Positions 22,260 to 57,302 of a DNA stretch of 64,000 nucleotides are shown here, one piece after another. The stretch's first letter is position 1. Every line of letters begins with the position of its first letter. The notes beneath the pieces were generated by a model. That model ran no database searches. It was not told the origin of the DNA and saw nothing but the letters and a program-made list of their open reading frames with translations. Source of the DNA: a virus; IMG/VR virus record IMGVR_UViG_3300041411_000080, positions 186,001 to 250,000 of that record. One strand, 5' to 3'. Position numbers and translations under genes: made by a program.

Positions 22260-24365
22260 ATGAGCGAAGATTTCAAACAGGAAGATGTGGTAGGCATTGA
22301 AGCCAAACACATTACCTTTGTAAGTGAACGTGGTGGTCGTAATGACATGCACGTTGTGAAAGAAGTTGTACACCTTAAGGACAAGCGTAGGATTAGTCGA
22401 ATCAAAATGATTCCTAACTACGAAAGACCTTTCTATATCGATCCAGCAGTTTACAAAGAAGAACGACTGAGACCGTACAAAGAGAAGAAGGACTATATGC
22501 CGCTGAATAAGCTGCGTAAGTTCATGACTACTCAGTCTAAGATGCCATTTGCAGTAGCAAAGGCTTTGAAAGATTACAGCATGGGACCTAACCCAAGGAT
22601 GCGACAGTTAAGTCGTAGCCCTTACCTTTATGGCTCTGACGTAAGTTCTGTATGCTGCTTGAAGAACGACTATCGGACCGACTATCCGGGATTGATCTCA
22701 CGTAACACCGTAGCAGGTGGCGACATCGAGACCAACGTATACGAAGATGAGAACGATGGGCAGATCATCTGTATGTCTGTTACTCACAAGTCTAACGTAT
22801 ACCTTGCTTATCTGCGTCATTGGGTACAAGACCTTAAAGATCCCATTAAAGAAACGTTTGAAGAACTCGAACGTATTCCTGAATTGGTTACACTGCGTAA
22901 AGCGCGTAACCTGAACATTCAGATCGAAGTAGTAGAGACTCCAGCTGATATCGTTATTCAGTGCATGAAGCGATTGCATGAATGGAAGCCTGACTTCTTT
23001 GCCTTCTGGAACATCGACTTCGACATGTCCAAAATCTTGGCTACGTTGGAGCGTTATGGGATTGATCCAGCTGACGTGTTCAGTGATCCTAATGTCCCTA
23101 AACAGTTTAAGTACTTCCACTATCGTCAAGACCAAGCGATGAACACCACAGCTTCTGGTGTGACTAAGTCTAAAGGTCCAGAAGATCAGTGGCATTGGAT
23201 TACAGCTCCAGCTAGTTTCCAATGCATCGACTCTATGTCTACGTATCGCGTTACTCGTTTGGCTAAGGGTAAGGAATCCAGTTATGCGTTAGATGCAATC
23301 CTTCGTAAAGAACTAAGCGTGGATGAAGAGTCTGAGATTAAGACAGAAGAAGAACTCAAAGCCTTCATTAAGAACGCTAACAAAGCAATGGAAGACCGTT
23401 CGGGTAGTCACCCTTACTGGAGCGTATCGAACCCAGCTGAAGATGTTATCACAACCGAGACCGTTACTGAGACTATTGAAGTTGAAGACGACGATGAGGA
23501 AGAGACTGAGGAAGGGGAAGATGATGACACCGTACCAGACTTCGATGATGACGATACTGTATCAGCGATCTATGAATTCGAAGAACACACGTACGAAGTA
23601 GAACACCGTGAGCCAGTATGGAAATCGGTTGATGAACTCGTATGGGGTGTTAACGTTTTTGAAGGTTACAAGGTTAGCTTTAAGCTGAACTTTGGTAAGT
23701 TGAAGTTTGCAGAAACCGACCACCTGTTCGGGATCGAATGGCACAAAGTGATGCAGACCCAACATAAGGTCCGCTACGGTCTTTACAACATCATCGACAG
23801 TATTCGACTAGAACAACTCGATGAGAAGATCAATGACTTGGCCAGTTCGATTACATTGTTCTCTAAGTCTTCGGACTTTAAGAACTTTAACTCGAACCCT
23901 AAGCGACTCTGTGACGACATGCACTTCTGGTACCTTAACCGACCAGAGCCATGTGTGATTGGTTCTAGTTCTGACCAGATGGTTCATGACTTAGACAAAT
24001 ACGTTGTGGGTCATGATGGGTGGATCGTTACACTGCCTTCCTATATGGCAGGTCCTAATGGTGTTAAGTGTGTTAAAGACTTACCGGACTATCGTTCGTT
24101 GATCTGGACACACGTAGCTGACTTGGACATCGTATCGACTTACCCTAACGTTAGTCAGATCCTGAACATTGCTCGTGAAACTACGGTTATGGAAACTGCT
24201 GCCATCCAAGGCATTAGCGATCACCATAAACGTGAGCTGGGTGTTAACCTGACGGGTTGCCGTGTGAACGTTCTGGAGATTGGCCAGAAGATTCTTAAGG
24301 CTCCACGCTTGGATGTTATCCTTGCAGCTTATCTTGCCTCTAAAGAAACTGAAGTCCCAAAGTAA
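22260..24365 (+). CDS. Family-B DNA polymerase, exonuclease and motif-A part, 701 aa
   Basis: Exo I is seen as GGDIETNVY (about 155), Exo II as FWNIDFDM (about 250) and Exo III as YNIIDSIRL (about 507): the 3'-5' proofreading exonuclease. ADLDIVSTYPN at about 620 matches palm motif A (DxxSxYP). An acidic linker (EDDDEEETEEGEDDD, about 405-425) interrupts the exonuclease domain. The ORF stops about 80 residues after motif A, and neither motif B (KxxxNSxYG) nor motif C (DTD) is present here or elsewhere in the window, so the rest of the polymerase must be encoded elsewhere or be very divergent. The stop directly follows a -1 slippery heptamer. Confidence 0.82.
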   Translation: MSEDFKQEDVVGIEAKHITFVSERGGRNDMHVVKEVVHLKDKRRISRIKMIPNYERPFYIDPAVYKEERLRPYKEKKDYMPLNKLRKFMTTQSKMPFAVAKALKDYSMGPNPRMRQLSRSPYLYGSDVSSVCCLKNDYRTDYPGLISRNTVAGGDIETNVYEDENDGQIICMSVTHKSNVYLAYLRHWVQDLKDPIKETFEELERIPELVTLRKARNLNIQIEVVETPADIVIQCMKRLHEWKPDFFAFWNIDFDMSKILATLERYGIDPADVFSDPNVPKQFKYFHYRQDQAMNTTASGVTKSKGPEDQWHWITAPASFQCIDSMSTYRVTRLAKGKESSYALDAILRKELSVDEESEIKTEEELKAFIKNANKAMEDRSGSHPYWSVSNPAEDVITTETVTETIEVEDDDEEETEEGEDDDTVPDFDDDDTVSAIYEFEEHTYEVEHREPVWKSVDELVWGVNVFEGYKVSFKLNFGKLKFAETDHLFGIEWHKVMQTQHKVRYGLYNIIDSIRLEQLDEKINDLASSITLFSKSSDFKNFNSNPKRLCDDMHFWYLNRPEPCVIGSSSDQMVHDLDKYVVGHDGWIVTLPSYMAGPNGVKCVKDLPDYRSLIWTHVADLDIVSTYPNVSQILNIARETTVMETAAIQGISDHHKRELGVNLTGCRVNVLEIGQKILKAPRLDVILAAYLASKETEVPK

Positions 24366-24415
24366 CTTACCGGTGGAAGCGTCGCGGAGGATTTGAATGC
24401 TCCTCCGTTGGCGAC
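24356..24415 (+). promoter_or_regulatory. Candidate -1 ribosomal frameshift signal at the DNA polymerase stop
   Basis: In the polymerase frame the codons read GTC CCA AAG TAA. CCCAAAG (24356-24362) fits the X XXY YYZ slippery rule exactly, and slipping back one base avoids the stop. Eighteen nt later a strong hairpin follows: GTCG (24381-24384) plus CGGAGGA (24385-24391), a 9-nt loop, TCCTCCG (24401-24407), a 4-nt bulge, and CGAC (24412-24415). The -1 frame then encodes KVTYRWKRRGG and continues without a stop to 24733. The spacer is longer than in typical frameshift sites. Confidence 0.6.
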
Positions 24416-24442
24416 AAACGTTTCAGTGCACTCTTTGCCTAT

Positions 24443-24733
24443 ATGCCGGATGGACGAACTATCGAGTGTCATTATCAGTGTGATGTTAAAGGTTACAATC
24501 CAGGTGGTACAAACTGGAGAGACGGGAAAGGTAAACCTCCTTTGGATACGTCCATAGACCTCTGGGGAGCTTATAAAGATCTTTGGCGAGTGTGGGCCAA
24601 GGCTAACCCGGAACTCATGCGTGAGCTGGCTGTAGGCGCTCAAGCTAATGATCTGTGGTTAAGTGATTGCTTTGCTAATACCGACATCTCCCAAGCCAGA
24701 GCTTTATGCGAACTATTGAATGAGGGTTACTAA
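24443..24733 (+). CDS. Conserved phage protein, possibly expressed as a -1 frameshift extension of DNA polymerase
   Basis: The first ATG in frame is 24443, but no Shine-Dalgarno precedes it, and the frame upstream codes well back to 24359: VTYRWKRRGGFECSSVGDKR then FSALFAYMPDGRTIE. I recall a widespread phage family with just this beginning (basic, GG, CSS.GDKRFSA..A.LPDGRTIE..YQ.DVKGY), so the true protein very likely starts at or before 24359, where no ATG, GTG or TTG exists. The conserved C-terminus (LSDCFANTDISQARALCELLNE) is intact. Either it is fused to the polymerase by frameshifting or it has lost its N-terminus. Biochemical function unknown to me. It overlaps the next ATG by 1 nt. 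Confidence 0.65.
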   Translation: MPDGRTIECHYQCDVKGYNPGGTNWRDGKGKPPLDTSIDLWGAYKDLWRVWAKANPELMRELAVGAQANDLWLSDCFANTDISQARALCELLNEGY

Positions 24734-25257
24734 TGAACGAGGAAGCTAAGACGTTCGATGTAAAGAAACTAGACGGTGAAGCAACGACCGCTTACTTGGC
24801 TATGCCAGATGCAATTAAGTTGTTAGTCCGGTGGGTTGAATTACCTGACATGCACATGTTGAATGAGTTGATGGATGTAGCTGAGAAACTCAAAGCTATT
24901 AAGCCATTGCCTGAAGGAACTAACCTGTTCCGTGGATTCTATCCTACGTCTGCTTATCAAGACACTATGGGTTTGATGAAGCGGGATTGGTTGGGGGCTA
25001 ACGTAAAACCTCATCGTGCAGGTGAGACTTATACGTACGCTCTAGAACGTCCTCTAAGCTTCACTACAGATCAATCCATGGCTGAGGCTTACGGTTCAAC
25101 TGTAATACAGCTACACGGCCAACCAGAGGCTTACGTTTGGATTACAGACGAGCTTAACCTGTTGCTTGCCACAGCTAGACGTAAAGAAGCTAAATCGGAG
25201 AAAGAAGTGATTGTACTTCCTCCCTTCGATGCACACTTCACGATCCTTAAGTCATAA
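24733..25257 (+). CDS. Probable mono-ADP-ribosyltransferase, 174 aa
   Basis: The order of motifs fits the R-S-E class of ADP-ribosyltransferases: NLFRGF (Arg, about residue 65), ERPLSFTTDQSMAEAYG (Ser-Phe-Thr, about 109), and SEKEVIVLPPF (E-x-E, about 155-157, followed by the typical hydrophobic strand). Such enzymes transfer ADP-ribose from NAD to host proteins; T4 Alt and ModA modify host RNA polymerase. The length is that of a single catalytic domain with a short helical N-part. It starts in the stop of the previous gene (TAATGA), so it is translationally coupled. Substrate unknown. The call is from motif order only. Confidence 0.6.
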   Translation: MNEEAKTFDVKKLDGEATTAYLAMPDAIKLLVRWVELPDMHMLNELMDVAEKLKAIKPLPEGTNLFRGFYPTSAYQDTMGLMKRDWLGANVKPHRAGETYTYALERPLSFTTDQSMAEAYGSTVIQLHGQPEAYVWITDELNLLLATARRKEAKSEKEVIVLPPFDAHFTILKS

Positions 25258-25260
25258 ACG

Positions 25261-25278
25261 GCTTCCCTTCGGGGAAGC
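25261..25278 (+). terminator. Hairpin terminator after the ADP-ribosyltransferase gene
   Basis: GCTTCCC and GGGAAGC pair around TTCG, followed by TTTATGCCGTC, the most complete form of the recurring tail. It lies directly after the stop at 25257. Confidence 0.85.
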
Positions 25279-25365
25279 TTTATGCCGTCAATCTTATAGT
25301 TGTTACAAAACAGGTCAGCTGATATGATTGGATTAATGTTAAGTCTCACTGAGGGAATGTAAAGT

Positions 25366-26061
25366 ATGATCGAACAGTATCTAGCTTGGGCAGGATTTAG
25401 CAACACTGCCAACCCTGATGATCCAATGGTCAAAGGTGGGCAGGTAGCTTATGCAACTCCGGGTACTTATATCTGGACTGTCCCTGAGGGAGTTACATCT
25501 ATTAGCGTAGTGGTTGTTTCAGCAGGCCAACAAGGTCGTGCTCAAGCAGCTGCCGCAGTTAACGCCGGCCGCGGTGGGTCTGTACGATGGAAGAATAACA
25601 TACCGGTAGTACCGGGTGAAACTTATACCCTCGTGGTAGGTAGTGGTGGTATCGCACAGTCTGTTCCGTCAGGCACAGCTAGTGAACACCAGACTGATTA
25701 CGCATCTAGTGCATTTGGTTTATTCGTGGGAGTTACATCCGCAGAGTCTACACCAAAGTCTGCTGAGATCGGCGGTGGCGATGGCGCGAATGGTGGCTCA
25801 GGTACTGGTCAAACATTCTATGGTGGTAACAGTGCAAGCTTCAATGGTGATAACTCAGTCGTTAACGGTCAAGGTATCACATTACTGAACGTAGTCTCTC
25901 CACGTAGCGGTATTAATGGTGGACCATGTGGCGGTGGCGGTGGTGCAATCGCTGTAAGTAGTGGTAACCGTTCTTGTGGTAAAGGTGGTGACGGCGGTAT
26001 CCGCATCATGTGGGGTAACGGTCGTGCTTACCCAGGTACACAGATTGCTGATCGTCCATAA
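25366..26061 (+). CDS. Glycine-rich virion/adhesin-like protein, 231 aa
   Basis: A short N-terminal part (about 1-30) is followed by a domain that begins VAYATPGTYIWTVPEGVTSISV, as in many phage tail-fibre and receptor-binding proteins, and continues with Gly-rich loops (GGGDGANGGSGTG, GGPCGGGGGAIAV, GKGGDGGIRI). Such polyglycine-rich domains often pack as glycine helices and bind surface receptors. GAGGGA lies upstream of the ATG. It has its own region between two terminators, so it is probably a single-gene unit. The adhesin role is inferred from domain style. Confidence 0.65.
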   Translation: MIEQYLAWAGFSNTANPDDPMVKGGQVAYATPGTYIWTVPEGVTSISVVVVSAGQQGRAQAAAAVNAGRGGSVRWKNNIPVVPGETYTLVVGSGGIAQSVPSGTASEHQTDYASSAFGLFVGVTSAESTPKSAEIGGGDGANGGSGTGQTFYGGNSASFNGDNSVVNGQGITLLNVVSPRSGINGGPCGGGGGAIAVSSGNRSCGKGGDGGIRIMWGNGRAYPGTQIADRP

Positions 26062-55406: not shown

Positions 55407-57302
55407 TTAGTAGAAGCTACCAACGCTCGAGTTGTACTGAGGACCGTAGCCTTGTTGCTGACCACCGTACTGTTGTACTTGTGCGGTACCACCAACCTGG
55501 AACTGGTTGATTACCGAGTTACCGGTGAAGCGCTGACCCGAGTTCAGTACCGAAGTGTTGTCCATGGTTACGGACAGGCCAACTGCTACGATAGCAGCGT
55601 CCAGTGCTTCGATGAACTTAGGGTTGAAGGTGCAACGTTCGGCTTTGCCAGTGTAGGTAACAGTGCTACCCAGGTACTGACGGTCGAAGTTACGGCTCTG
55701 CTTAGCACGCTGATCCGGGTGGATGTTGGTGTTCTGCTGCGAACCGTAGTAAGCCCACCATTCGTTCAGGTTACCTTCCGATGCGTTCAGGGCACCGAGG
55801 TTGTCCAGTTCACGACGGTCACGCTTCTCGCCATCTTCGTCGAGGTAGTGACCCAGATCGATAGTCTGACCAGTCTTAACCAGAATCGGCTGAGTGGTGT
55901 AGTCGAAGAACTTACCGAAGTCTACGCCCAGCAGGTTGGTGATCTGACGAACTGCGGTTGCTACTGCTTTCTGTTGGTTCTCACCACCAGCAGCGTCCAA
56001 CAGCATGCCATCGATCGGACCGTTCTCACCCAGACGGTTGAGGTCGATCTGGAACACTGGCTTGTCTTTGATCATGCTTACGGTCAGCATGCCGAACTGA
56101 GCATCGTCGAACGATGCAGCCTTGGTGTCGATCTTGTTCTGAAGCTGCGACAGCCAGCCCAGAGCACCGATATCACGCAGGTCTTTAGCCTTACCAGTTT
56201 GTGGCAGGAATGGACGAGCCCAAGCGTGACCGTGAGTTGCACGGTATGCGTTAGACAGAGCCAACCAGTACATTTCTGGAGTGTTGGCCTGAATGCCATC
56301 AGCGTTACGTACGTCGGTGATTACGACAGCAGCGGTGCACGGTGGAACCGGCTGACCTACTTGCTGACCTGCACCGAAGAAGTTGCTCTGTTGAGCTTGC
56401 TGCTGGTACTCGAGGTTGGTGAACATCGACACTTGGTTCAGCTTGACGTCAGTCTCGTAGAACTCGTTGTCCTGCTGTTGGCCTTGACGACGAACACGCT
56501 GCATGCCTACAACCACGTCGGAACGGATTGGGTTACCCAGAGTATCGGTAACGGTCAGGTCACGGGTGTCGATCTTGGCAGCCAGAGTTTCTTCTTGGCC
56601 TTTCAGCATGCTGATGGTGAATGGCTTCTCACCGCTACGACGTTGCAGGTGATCTTCACAGGCGTTAACCGATTTGATCAGCAGAGCACGCAGTTGCAGT
56701 TCGGAATCCTTCAGGACCAGATCAGCAGGGATTGGGAAAGCACCAGCCAGAACGACTTCAGCGTTAGGCTTGCTCAGAGCAGCTTGCACGTAGGCAACCA
56801 GCTTACCGTGGTACTTCTTGCTGAATACGTCACCAACCGAAACTTCGGTTTCGATGACTTCTTGATGCATGCCGTTTTGCAGAGTGATCTTGCGGGTCGG
56901 CAGTTCGATCGATGCGTTCGGCATGATCAGAGGACGGATCACGATCAGAGCCTTACCGTTGATGGTGGCTGCTTTAGCGATGATCAGCGAGGACCAACCC
57001 ACTTGGTTTTGGTCACGGTCGAAACGCAGAATGCTGAAGTCGTCCTTCAGGTCTTGCGATTCTACAGCCTGAGCTTTCAGGCGGTTGAAGAGTTGCAGTG
57101 CTTCGCTCGAACGAGCGTCGCCACCTTGAGTCTTACCGGAACGCTCGAAGTTCGAGTTCAGGTCACGACCAGCGAATTGGTTTTGTTGCACTTGTGGTTG
57201 TTCCATTTGAGGCGCCTGCGTTTGTGGTGGTGCTTGGGTAACTGGAGCTTGTTGAACTGGTGCTTGAGTTTGGGTGGCACCGGTGTCTTTGTCACGAATC
57301 AT
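55407..57302 (-). CDS. chmA: ChmA (chimallin), phage nucleus shell protein, 631 aa
   Basis: The length of 631 residues equals, as I recall, that of the 201phi2-1 nucleus shell protein gp105. A Gln/Pro-rich disordered N-terminus (about 1-42) is followed by a short segment (NQFAGRDLNSNFERSG) suited to act as the N-terminal strap, then two globular domains (about 65-230 and 245-580) and a Gln/Gly/Tyr-rich tail (QQQGYGPQYNSSVGSFY). ChmA assembles into the single-layer lattice that encloses replicating phage DNA and excludes host nucleases. The adjacent non-virion beta' gene fits the phiKZ order 54-55. AAAGGAAAG precedes the ATG, and a 35-nt early-promoter element lies about 67 nt upstream. The gene looks more G+C-rich and codon-biased than its neighbours, as expected for very high expression. 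Confidence 0.85.
   Translation of the reverse strand: MIRDKDTGATQTQAPVQQAPVTQAPPQTQAPQMEQPQVQQNQFAGRDLNSNFERSGKTQGGDARSSEALQLFNRLKAQAVESQDLKDDFSILRFDRDQNQVGWSSLIIAKAATINGKALIVIRPLIMPNASIELPTRKITLQNGMHQEVIETEVSVGDVFSKKYHGKLVAYVQAALSKPNAEVVLAGAFPIPADLVLKDSELQLRALLIKSVNACEDHLQRRSGEKPFTISMLKGQEETLAAKIDTRDLTVTDTLGNPIRSDVVVGMQRVRRQGQQQDNEFYETDVKLNQVSMFTNLEYQQQAQQSNFFGAGQQVGQPVPPCTAAVVITDVRNADGIQANTPEMYWLALSNAYRATHGHAWARPFLPQTGKAKDLRDIGALGWLSQLQNKIDTKAASFDDAQFGMLTVSMIKDKPVFQIDLNRLGENGPIDGMLLDAAGGENQQKAVATAVRQITNLLGVDFGKFFDYTTQPILVKTGQTIDLGHYLDEDGEKRDRRELDNLGALNASEGNLNEWWAYYGSQQNTNIHPDQRAKQSRNFDRQYLGSTVTYTGKAERCTFNPKFIEALDAAIVAVGLSVTMDNTSVLNSGQRFTGNSVINQFQVGGTAQVQQYGGQQQGYGPQYNSSVGSFY

What the first reader, a model, noticed from the sequence alone, without database searches (positions are those of the whole stretch)
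24733..25257. Probable ADP-ribosyltransferase coupled to the polymerase unit
Ordered R / S-F-T / E-K-E motifs with matching spacing in a 174-aa protein point to an ART fold. In T4, ARTs modify host RNA polymerase. In a nucleus-forming phage with its own RNA polymerases the target may be different, for example translation or defence factors. Its start overlaps the previous stop, so it is made together with the domain at 24443.
Basis: partly seen in the sequence, partly recalled or inferred. Interest (0 to 1): 0.7.

Follow-up and report, generated by a model that had tools for sequence, protein, structure and literature searches.

The report
ADP-ribosyltransferase gene in nucleus-forming phage
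A nucleus-forming giant phage carries, in one gene cluster with its DNA polymerase, a small enzyme that by sequence and predicted fold should attach ADP-ribose to a host molecule, as phage T4's Mod enzymes do; the enzyme class is known, but this family was unannotated and its target is unknown.

Summary
The ORF is real (174 aa, 24733-25257 +) and under purifying selection (dN/dS 0.12 against an 86%-identical relative). It belongs to a small unannotated family (phrog_29772). In nine divergent members R67-G68, S109-x-T111 and E158 are invariant; the first Glu of "E-K-E" is not (E/Q/M). A profile of the nine matches a T4 ModA/ModB profile (hhalign 95.6%, E 1.2e-8; none of 200 column shuffles comes close), with R, S and Glu in register in a global alignment. 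Individual relatives weakly touch DRAT and ADP-ribosyltransferase exoenzyme models. A second AlphaFold model (pLDDT 78) has the expected strand order, and 8 of its 10 best PDB neighbours are ADP-ribosyltransferases, though with weak scores. So the ADP-ribosyltransferase reading stands; the target is unknown. The phage has its own RNA polymerases and a chimallin gene, so host RNA polymerase is not the obvious target. "Coupling" to the polymerase is co-expression at most: the nearest named relatives keep polymerase plus downstream domain but lack this gene, and other phages carry it elsewhere. Verdict: new member of a known kind. Side finding: a possible -1 frameshift site that would fuse the DNA polymerase to the intervening domain.

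The parts
24733..25257 (+). ART gene, 174 aa, family phrog_29772
24931..24936 (+). R67-G68 codons (conserved Arg of R-S-E ARTs, on predicted strand 65-69)
   Evidence: invariant in 9 of 9 members; aligns with T4 ModB R73-G74; strand in model
25057..25065 (+). S109-F-T111 codons (Ser motif on predicted strand 108-111)
   Evidence: S and T invariant in 9 of 9, F in 8 of 9; aligns with ModB S99-F-T
25198..25206 (+). E156-K-E158 codons; E158 is the expected catalytic Glu
   Evidence: E158 invariant in 9 of 9, E156 is E/Q/M; E158 in register with ModB E173 in global alignment
24362..24733 (+). phrog_9995 domain frame directly upstream, overlapping the ART start by 1 nt
   Evidence: phrog_9995 E 6.8e-35; whole frame back to 24362 protein-conserved
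22260..24365 (+). DNA polymerase gene heading the same rightward gene run
   Evidence: phrog_3011 E 4.9e-228; equivalent of 201phi2-1 gp144
25260..25279 (+). terminator-like hairpin GGCTTCCC-TTCG-GGGAAGCT + TTTATG just after the ART
   Evidence: fold z -2.3; compensatory T-A to A-T pair in L006; not called by the consensus scan, so its role is inferred

Best explanation
The gene encodes an R-S-E-type mono-ADP-ribosyltransferase. NAD binds the cleft formed by the R67 strand, the S109-x-T111 strand and the E158 loop; E158 promotes loss of nicotinamide, and ADP-ribose is passed to a residue on a target macromolecule, probably a host protein in the cytoplasm. It is probably made together with the DNA polymerase run rather than packaged like T4 Alt: it is translated from a start overlapping the upstream domain's stop and closes the gene run. 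Shown here: a conserved coding gene, invariant catalytic residues, profile homology to T4 ModA/ModB, ART-like predicted fold. Inferred: NAD transferase activity, host protein as substrate, time of expression, and the target (most likely translation or a defence component rather than host RNA polymerase, because the phage carries its own).
For: Nine-member family with invariant W34, R67, G68, S109, T111, A117, G121, E140, E158. hhalign against a ModA/ModB profile: 95.6%, E 1.2e-8, score 59.6 versus at most 22.7 in 200 column shuffles; reversed-profile control 0.15%. Single relatives match phrog_832 'RNA polymerase ADP-ribosylase' (1e-4), PF03496 (0.009) and PF07357 DRAT (best 0.0087). Model pLDDT 78, pTM 0.73, with R, S and E on strands in ART order. 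PDB neighbours are ARTs in 8 of the top 10. A DNA pattern of only the Ser-motif region, scanned over 2.9 million viral contigs, pulled out a new family member plus further proteins that by eye have RG before the motif. dN/dS 0.12.
Against: The window protein alone matches no ART model in Pfam or NCBIfam, and single-model hits of relatives are below curated cut-offs. Foldseek PDB E-values are at best 0.035 and TM-scores at most about 0.39. A first model from three sequences failed (pLDDT 35). When the R and S motif columns are masked, the match to ModA/ModB falls to P 0.008, so homology rests mostly on the motif regions. The first Glu of ExE is not conserved in the family. No activity data; target unknown.
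Confidence: 0.85

Rival explanations
1. ART-fold NAD glycohydrolase, or a version that mainly consumes NAD: it lowers NAD rather than modifying a defined target.
For: The first Glu of ExE, which in arginine-specific ARTs helps transfer (own knowledge), is Q or M in six of nine members; some phage ARTs are proposed to be NADases (PMC9503650).
Against: The window copy keeps E-x-E; a lytic phage needs NAD itself (general reasoning); Q-x-E enzymes of other families are transferases (own knowledge).
Confidence: 0.1
2. A special case of the best explanation: a counter-defence ART that, like the anti-CRISPR AcrIF11, modifies and disables one host immune protein.
For: Patchy, accessory distribution: present in the window phage and L006, absent from three close relatives and in different neighbourhoods in other phages. 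AcrIF11 shows that phages and plasmids use ARTs this way (PMC12421852).
Against: AcrIF11 is diphtheria-like, whereas this protein is R-S-E; no match to any PADLOC model; no neighbouring anti-defence gene recognised.
Confidence: 0.3
3. A special case of the best explanation: an RNAylase that, like T4 ModB, uses NAD-capped RNA as well as NAD and links RNA to ribosomal proteins.
For: T4 ModB, which attaches NAD-RNA to rS1 and rL2 (PMC10468400), gave the best single-protein profile match of the T4 enzymes: P 1.2e-4, against 0.025 for ModA and 0.43 for Alt.
Against: RNAylation cannot be read from sequence; the resemblance is to the generic catalytic core.
Confidence: 0.15
4. Not an ART: an unrelated small protein with a chance R...SFT...EKE order.
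For: No database names the family; PDB and Pfam scores for the window protein itself are weak.
Against: Invariance in nine divergent members, profile match at E 1e-8 with shuffle and reversal controls, and ART neighbours of the fold.
Confidence: 0.04

Closest known systems
T4 ModB / ModA (phrog_832 C-terminal region, mono-ART)
   Same: Size about 170-210 aa; L-Y-R-G, S-F-[ST] and x-E motifs in the same order and in register in profile alignment; stand-alone phage gene.
   Different: R-to-S spacing 32-43 versus 24-27 and S-to-E spacing 49-53 versus 64-76; first Glu of ExE not conserved; this phage carries its own RNA polymerases, T4 does not.
DRAT, dinitrogenase reductase ADP-ribosyltransferase (PF07357)
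   Same: Five of nine members touch the same DRAT stretch around the R and S motifs.
   Different: All far below the curated cut-off (12.7-15.7 versus 25 bits); window protein itself has no hit; no nitrogenase context.
ADP-ribosyltransferase exoenzyme family (PF03496) and solved R-S-E ARTs
   Same: R-G / S-x-T / [EQ]-x-E order; neighbours in fold search.
   Different: Only one relative hits PF03496, at E 0.009; no secretion or delivery domain; a phage protein.
AcrIF11 (anti-CRISPR ART)
   Same: Small phage ART fold; 6kyf appears in the fold list (rank 32).
   Different: AcrIF11 is diphtheria-like (PMC12421852); the window family has invariant R and S in those places.
Ralstonia phage RP12 uncharacterised protein A0A1L7N0U9
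   Same: Second-best viral fold match, E 4e-10, TM 0.71; 211 aa, the length of the phrog_29772 profile.
   Different: Unannotated, 21% identity; not studied further.

Membership tests
ART superfamily, R-S-E clade | Conserved Arg on the first core strand | tested here: met
   R67 in 9 of 9, predicted strand 65-69
ART superfamily, R-S-E clade | Ser-x-Ser/Thr motif on a core strand | tested here: met
   S109 and T111 in 9 of 9, predicted strand 108-111
ART superfamily, R-S-E clade | Catalytic Glu, second position of [EQ]-x-E | tested here: met
   E158 in 9 of 9, in register with ModB E173 in global profile alignment
ART superfamily, R-S-E clade | First position E (Arg-type) or Q | tested here: inconclusive
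   E in window, L006, L019; Q in four members; M in two
ART superfamily, R-S-E clade | Split beta-sheet ART fold | tested here: inconclusive
   Strand and helix order fits, pLDDT 78; 8 of top 10 PDB neighbours are ARTs but E at best 0.035, TM at most 0.39
ART superfamily, R-S-E clade | NAD-dependent ADP-ribosyl transfer | not testable with these tools
   needs biochemistry
T4 ModA/ModB family | Direct match to phrog_832 | tested here: not met
   Window protein has no hit; only one relative at 1e-4. Profile-profile homology only
DRAT family (PF07357) | Score above curated cut-off of 25 bits | tested here: not met
   Best 15.7 bits, in a relative
AcrIF11 / diphtheria-like ARTs | Diphtheria-like active site in place of R-S | tested here: not met
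   R67 and S109 invariant instead
phrog_29772 | Profile match | tested here: met
   All 7 members of A5 match at E up to 1, window at 3.6e-6, best 1.8e-10; one member only at 0.17

The most novel reading that the evidence does not exclude
A distinct ART family of phages that carry their own multisubunit RNA polymerases, with a variable [E/Q/M]-x-E position, whose target is not RNA polymerase but a cytoplasmic process peculiar to nucleus-forming infection (for example translation of exported mRNA, or a cytoplasmic defence protein), possibly by attaching NAD-capped RNA.
Probability: 0.25. Interest if true: 0.7.

Novelty: new member of a known kind. Interest (0 to 1): 0.42.

Why it matters
Jumbo phages are known to carry ARTs, but a survey found them mostly in jumbo phages without their own RNA polymerase (PMC7824862). 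Here a family sits in phages that do have it: a phiKZ-type RNA polymerase subunit was found in 8 of 10 records carrying the gene, and the two without are fragments of 16 and 151 kb. That makes host RNA polymerase an unlikely main target and gives a clean entry point to ask what else a phage gains by ADP-ribosylation. It also gives a likely function to an unannotated protein family (phrog_29772).

Tried and rejected
First AlphaFold job with three sequences gave pLDDT 35 and was discarded. phmmer/hmmsearch against PDB sequences found no ART; the top chance hit was VPS28. NCBIfam and PADLOC: nothing relevant. The seven-member alignment was too divergent to seed a contig scan; scans from pairs gave few loci. 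A degenerate pattern on the Glu motif re-found known members plus one chance match, L025. T4 Alt and T4 DNA ligase as single-sequence comparisons gave nothing. NADAR as an eraser partner: absent from the window phage. Macro domain: present in the window phage but also in relatives without the ART, so not linked. AcrIF11 membership rejected on active-site type. Virion-packaged Alt-like delivery is not favoured because of the operon position, but packaging was not tested.

Full report
WHAT IS THERE. The 174-aa ORF at 24733-25257 (+) exists as described. Its ATG shares one base with the TAA of the ORF before it, behind a GAGGG motif. In the closest relative found (L006, IMG/VR, 86% identical) the same two genes overlap by ATGA. 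Between the two phages the ORF shows dN 0.085 and dS 0.71, ratio 0.12, only in this frame, so it is a selected protein.

WHERE IT SITS. The window is part of a 320,858-base virus record. It carries subunits of a phiKZ-type RNA polymerase and, at 55410-57302 on the minus strand, a chimallin 66% identical to 201phi2-1 gp105. The phage is therefore of the nucleus-forming type, related to Pseudomonas phage 201phi2-1 (76% nucleotide identity over 38% of the stretch). The rightward run is DNA polymerase (22260-24365), phrog_9995 domain, ART, then a TTCG hairpin that keeps its pairing through a T-A to A-T change in L006. That hairpin is probably a terminator, though the consensus scan did not call it. 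The polymerase and domain are also adjacent in 201phi2-1, Viktualia and Psa21, but these three lack the ART. In 201phi2-1 and Viktualia two other small genes follow the domain. In other phages ART relatives lie by terminase (L015; BONAISHI about 5 kb from it), next to virion genes (SXP01, unannotated there) or among small unknown genes (Eowyn). So the ART is an accessory gene that appears to share an expression unit with the polymerase here. A functional tie to the polymerase is not supported.

WHAT IT IS. Direct searches name nothing except phrog_29772, unannotated. Collecting relatives changed that. Nine distinct members from nine phages (relatives 21-86% identical to the window protein) share invariant W34, R67, G68, S109, T111, A117, G121, E140 and E158: the R, S-x-T and Glu of R-S-E ARTs. 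Individual relatives touch three separate ART models: phrog_832 'RNA polymerase ADP-ribosylase' (1e-4), PF03496 (0.009) and PF07357 DRAT in five members (best 0.0087). The nine-member profile against a nine-member T4 ModA/ModB profile gives 95.6% and E 1.2e-8 with LYRG and SFT in register. The best of 200 column-shuffled profiles scores 22.7 against 59.6; the reversed profile scores 12.9, and a forced global alignment puts E158 on ModB E173. Masking the R and S motif columns drops the match to P 0.008, so it depends mostly on the motif regions. A DNA pattern from the Ser-motif region, applied to 2.9 million viral contigs, recovered nine stretches. They include the new member L019 (same protein in L020 and L021) and further proteins (L017, L022, L023) that by eye have the RG motif before and, in L022 and L023, an ExE-like motif after; that is my reading, not a search result, and L022 has no Pfam match.

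FOLD. With five eligible sequences AlphaFold gave pLDDT 78 and pTM 0.73: three N-terminal helices, strand 65-69 (R67), strands 99-104 and 108-111 (S109, T111), helix 114-120, strands 123-128 and 134-137, helix 139-148, strands 158-161 (E158) and 165-173. Residues 74-91 are uncertain. In the PDB eight of the ten best matches are ARTs, but with E of 0.035 or worse and TM up to 0.39. In viral models the best matches are 200-, 211- and 172-aa proteins, the second from Ralstonia phage RP12, at E 2e-11 to 2e-8; weaker ones include annotated ARTs, ModB and ModA (TM 0.52).

HOW IT PROBABLY WORKS. As a mono-ADP-ribosyltransferase using E158 and NAD. The activity is inferred from families whose Arg mutation is known to abolish it (ModB R73A/G74A, PMC10468400). 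Because the phage has its own polymerases, and because T4 ModB acts on ribosomal proteins rS1 and rL2, I rate translation and defence factors above host RNA polymerase as targets, but nothing here identifies the target.

WHAT IS NEW. ARTs are reported in over 40% of jumbo phages (PMC9503650) and mostly in those lacking their own RNA polymerase (PMC7824862). This is a previously unnamed family of that known kind, in RNA-polymerase-bearing phages.

SIDE FINDING. The phrog_9995 domain frame has no start codon upstream of 24443, yet is open and conserved as protein from 24362 (25 of 27 residues identical, other frames interrupted). The polymerase ends GTC CCA AAG TAA; the heptamer C_CCA_AAG fits a -1 frameshift site and would lead straight into that frame. 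The heptamer followed at once or after one codon by a stop is kept in L006, 201phi2-1 and Viktualia, although the preceding codon differs. In 201phi2-1 and Viktualia a GTG start is also available; Psa21 uses another frame with a TTG. RNA structure downstream is not unusual (z -0.07). This is a lead, not a result.

Noticed in passing
window 24340-24443: Possible programmed -1 frameshift: DNA polymerase ends C_CCA_AAG-TAA and the -1 frame runs into the phrog_9995 domain, which lacks any start codon upstream of 24443 but is protein-conserved back to 24362. Heptamer kept in L006, 201phi2-1 and Viktualia; no unusual RNA structure.
   Followed up: partly
L001 5968-6534: An ART relative in Shewanella phage SXP01 is an unannotated gene in the GenBank record.
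   Followed up: yes
L023, long ORF on the strand of the match: A 3022-aa phage ORF appears to hold several repeated ART-like segments (LYRG ... SSFT ... ExE-like) separated by a repeated CPESGCGR segment.
   Followed up: no
G000:C1:181711-182046 (-), outside the window: Macro-domain protein in the same phage, also in 201phi2-1, Viktualia and Psa21 which lack the ART.
   Followed up: partly
window 25366-26061 and L006 5588-6952: Glycine-rich protein (PF21722, phrog_4474) follows the ART; in L006 an extra 221-aa ORF lies between them.
   Followed up: no
L008 4719-5419; L009 5791-6496: 201phi2-1 and Viktualia have a CPCC-motif protein and a second small gene in the slot taken by the ART here.
   Followed up: no
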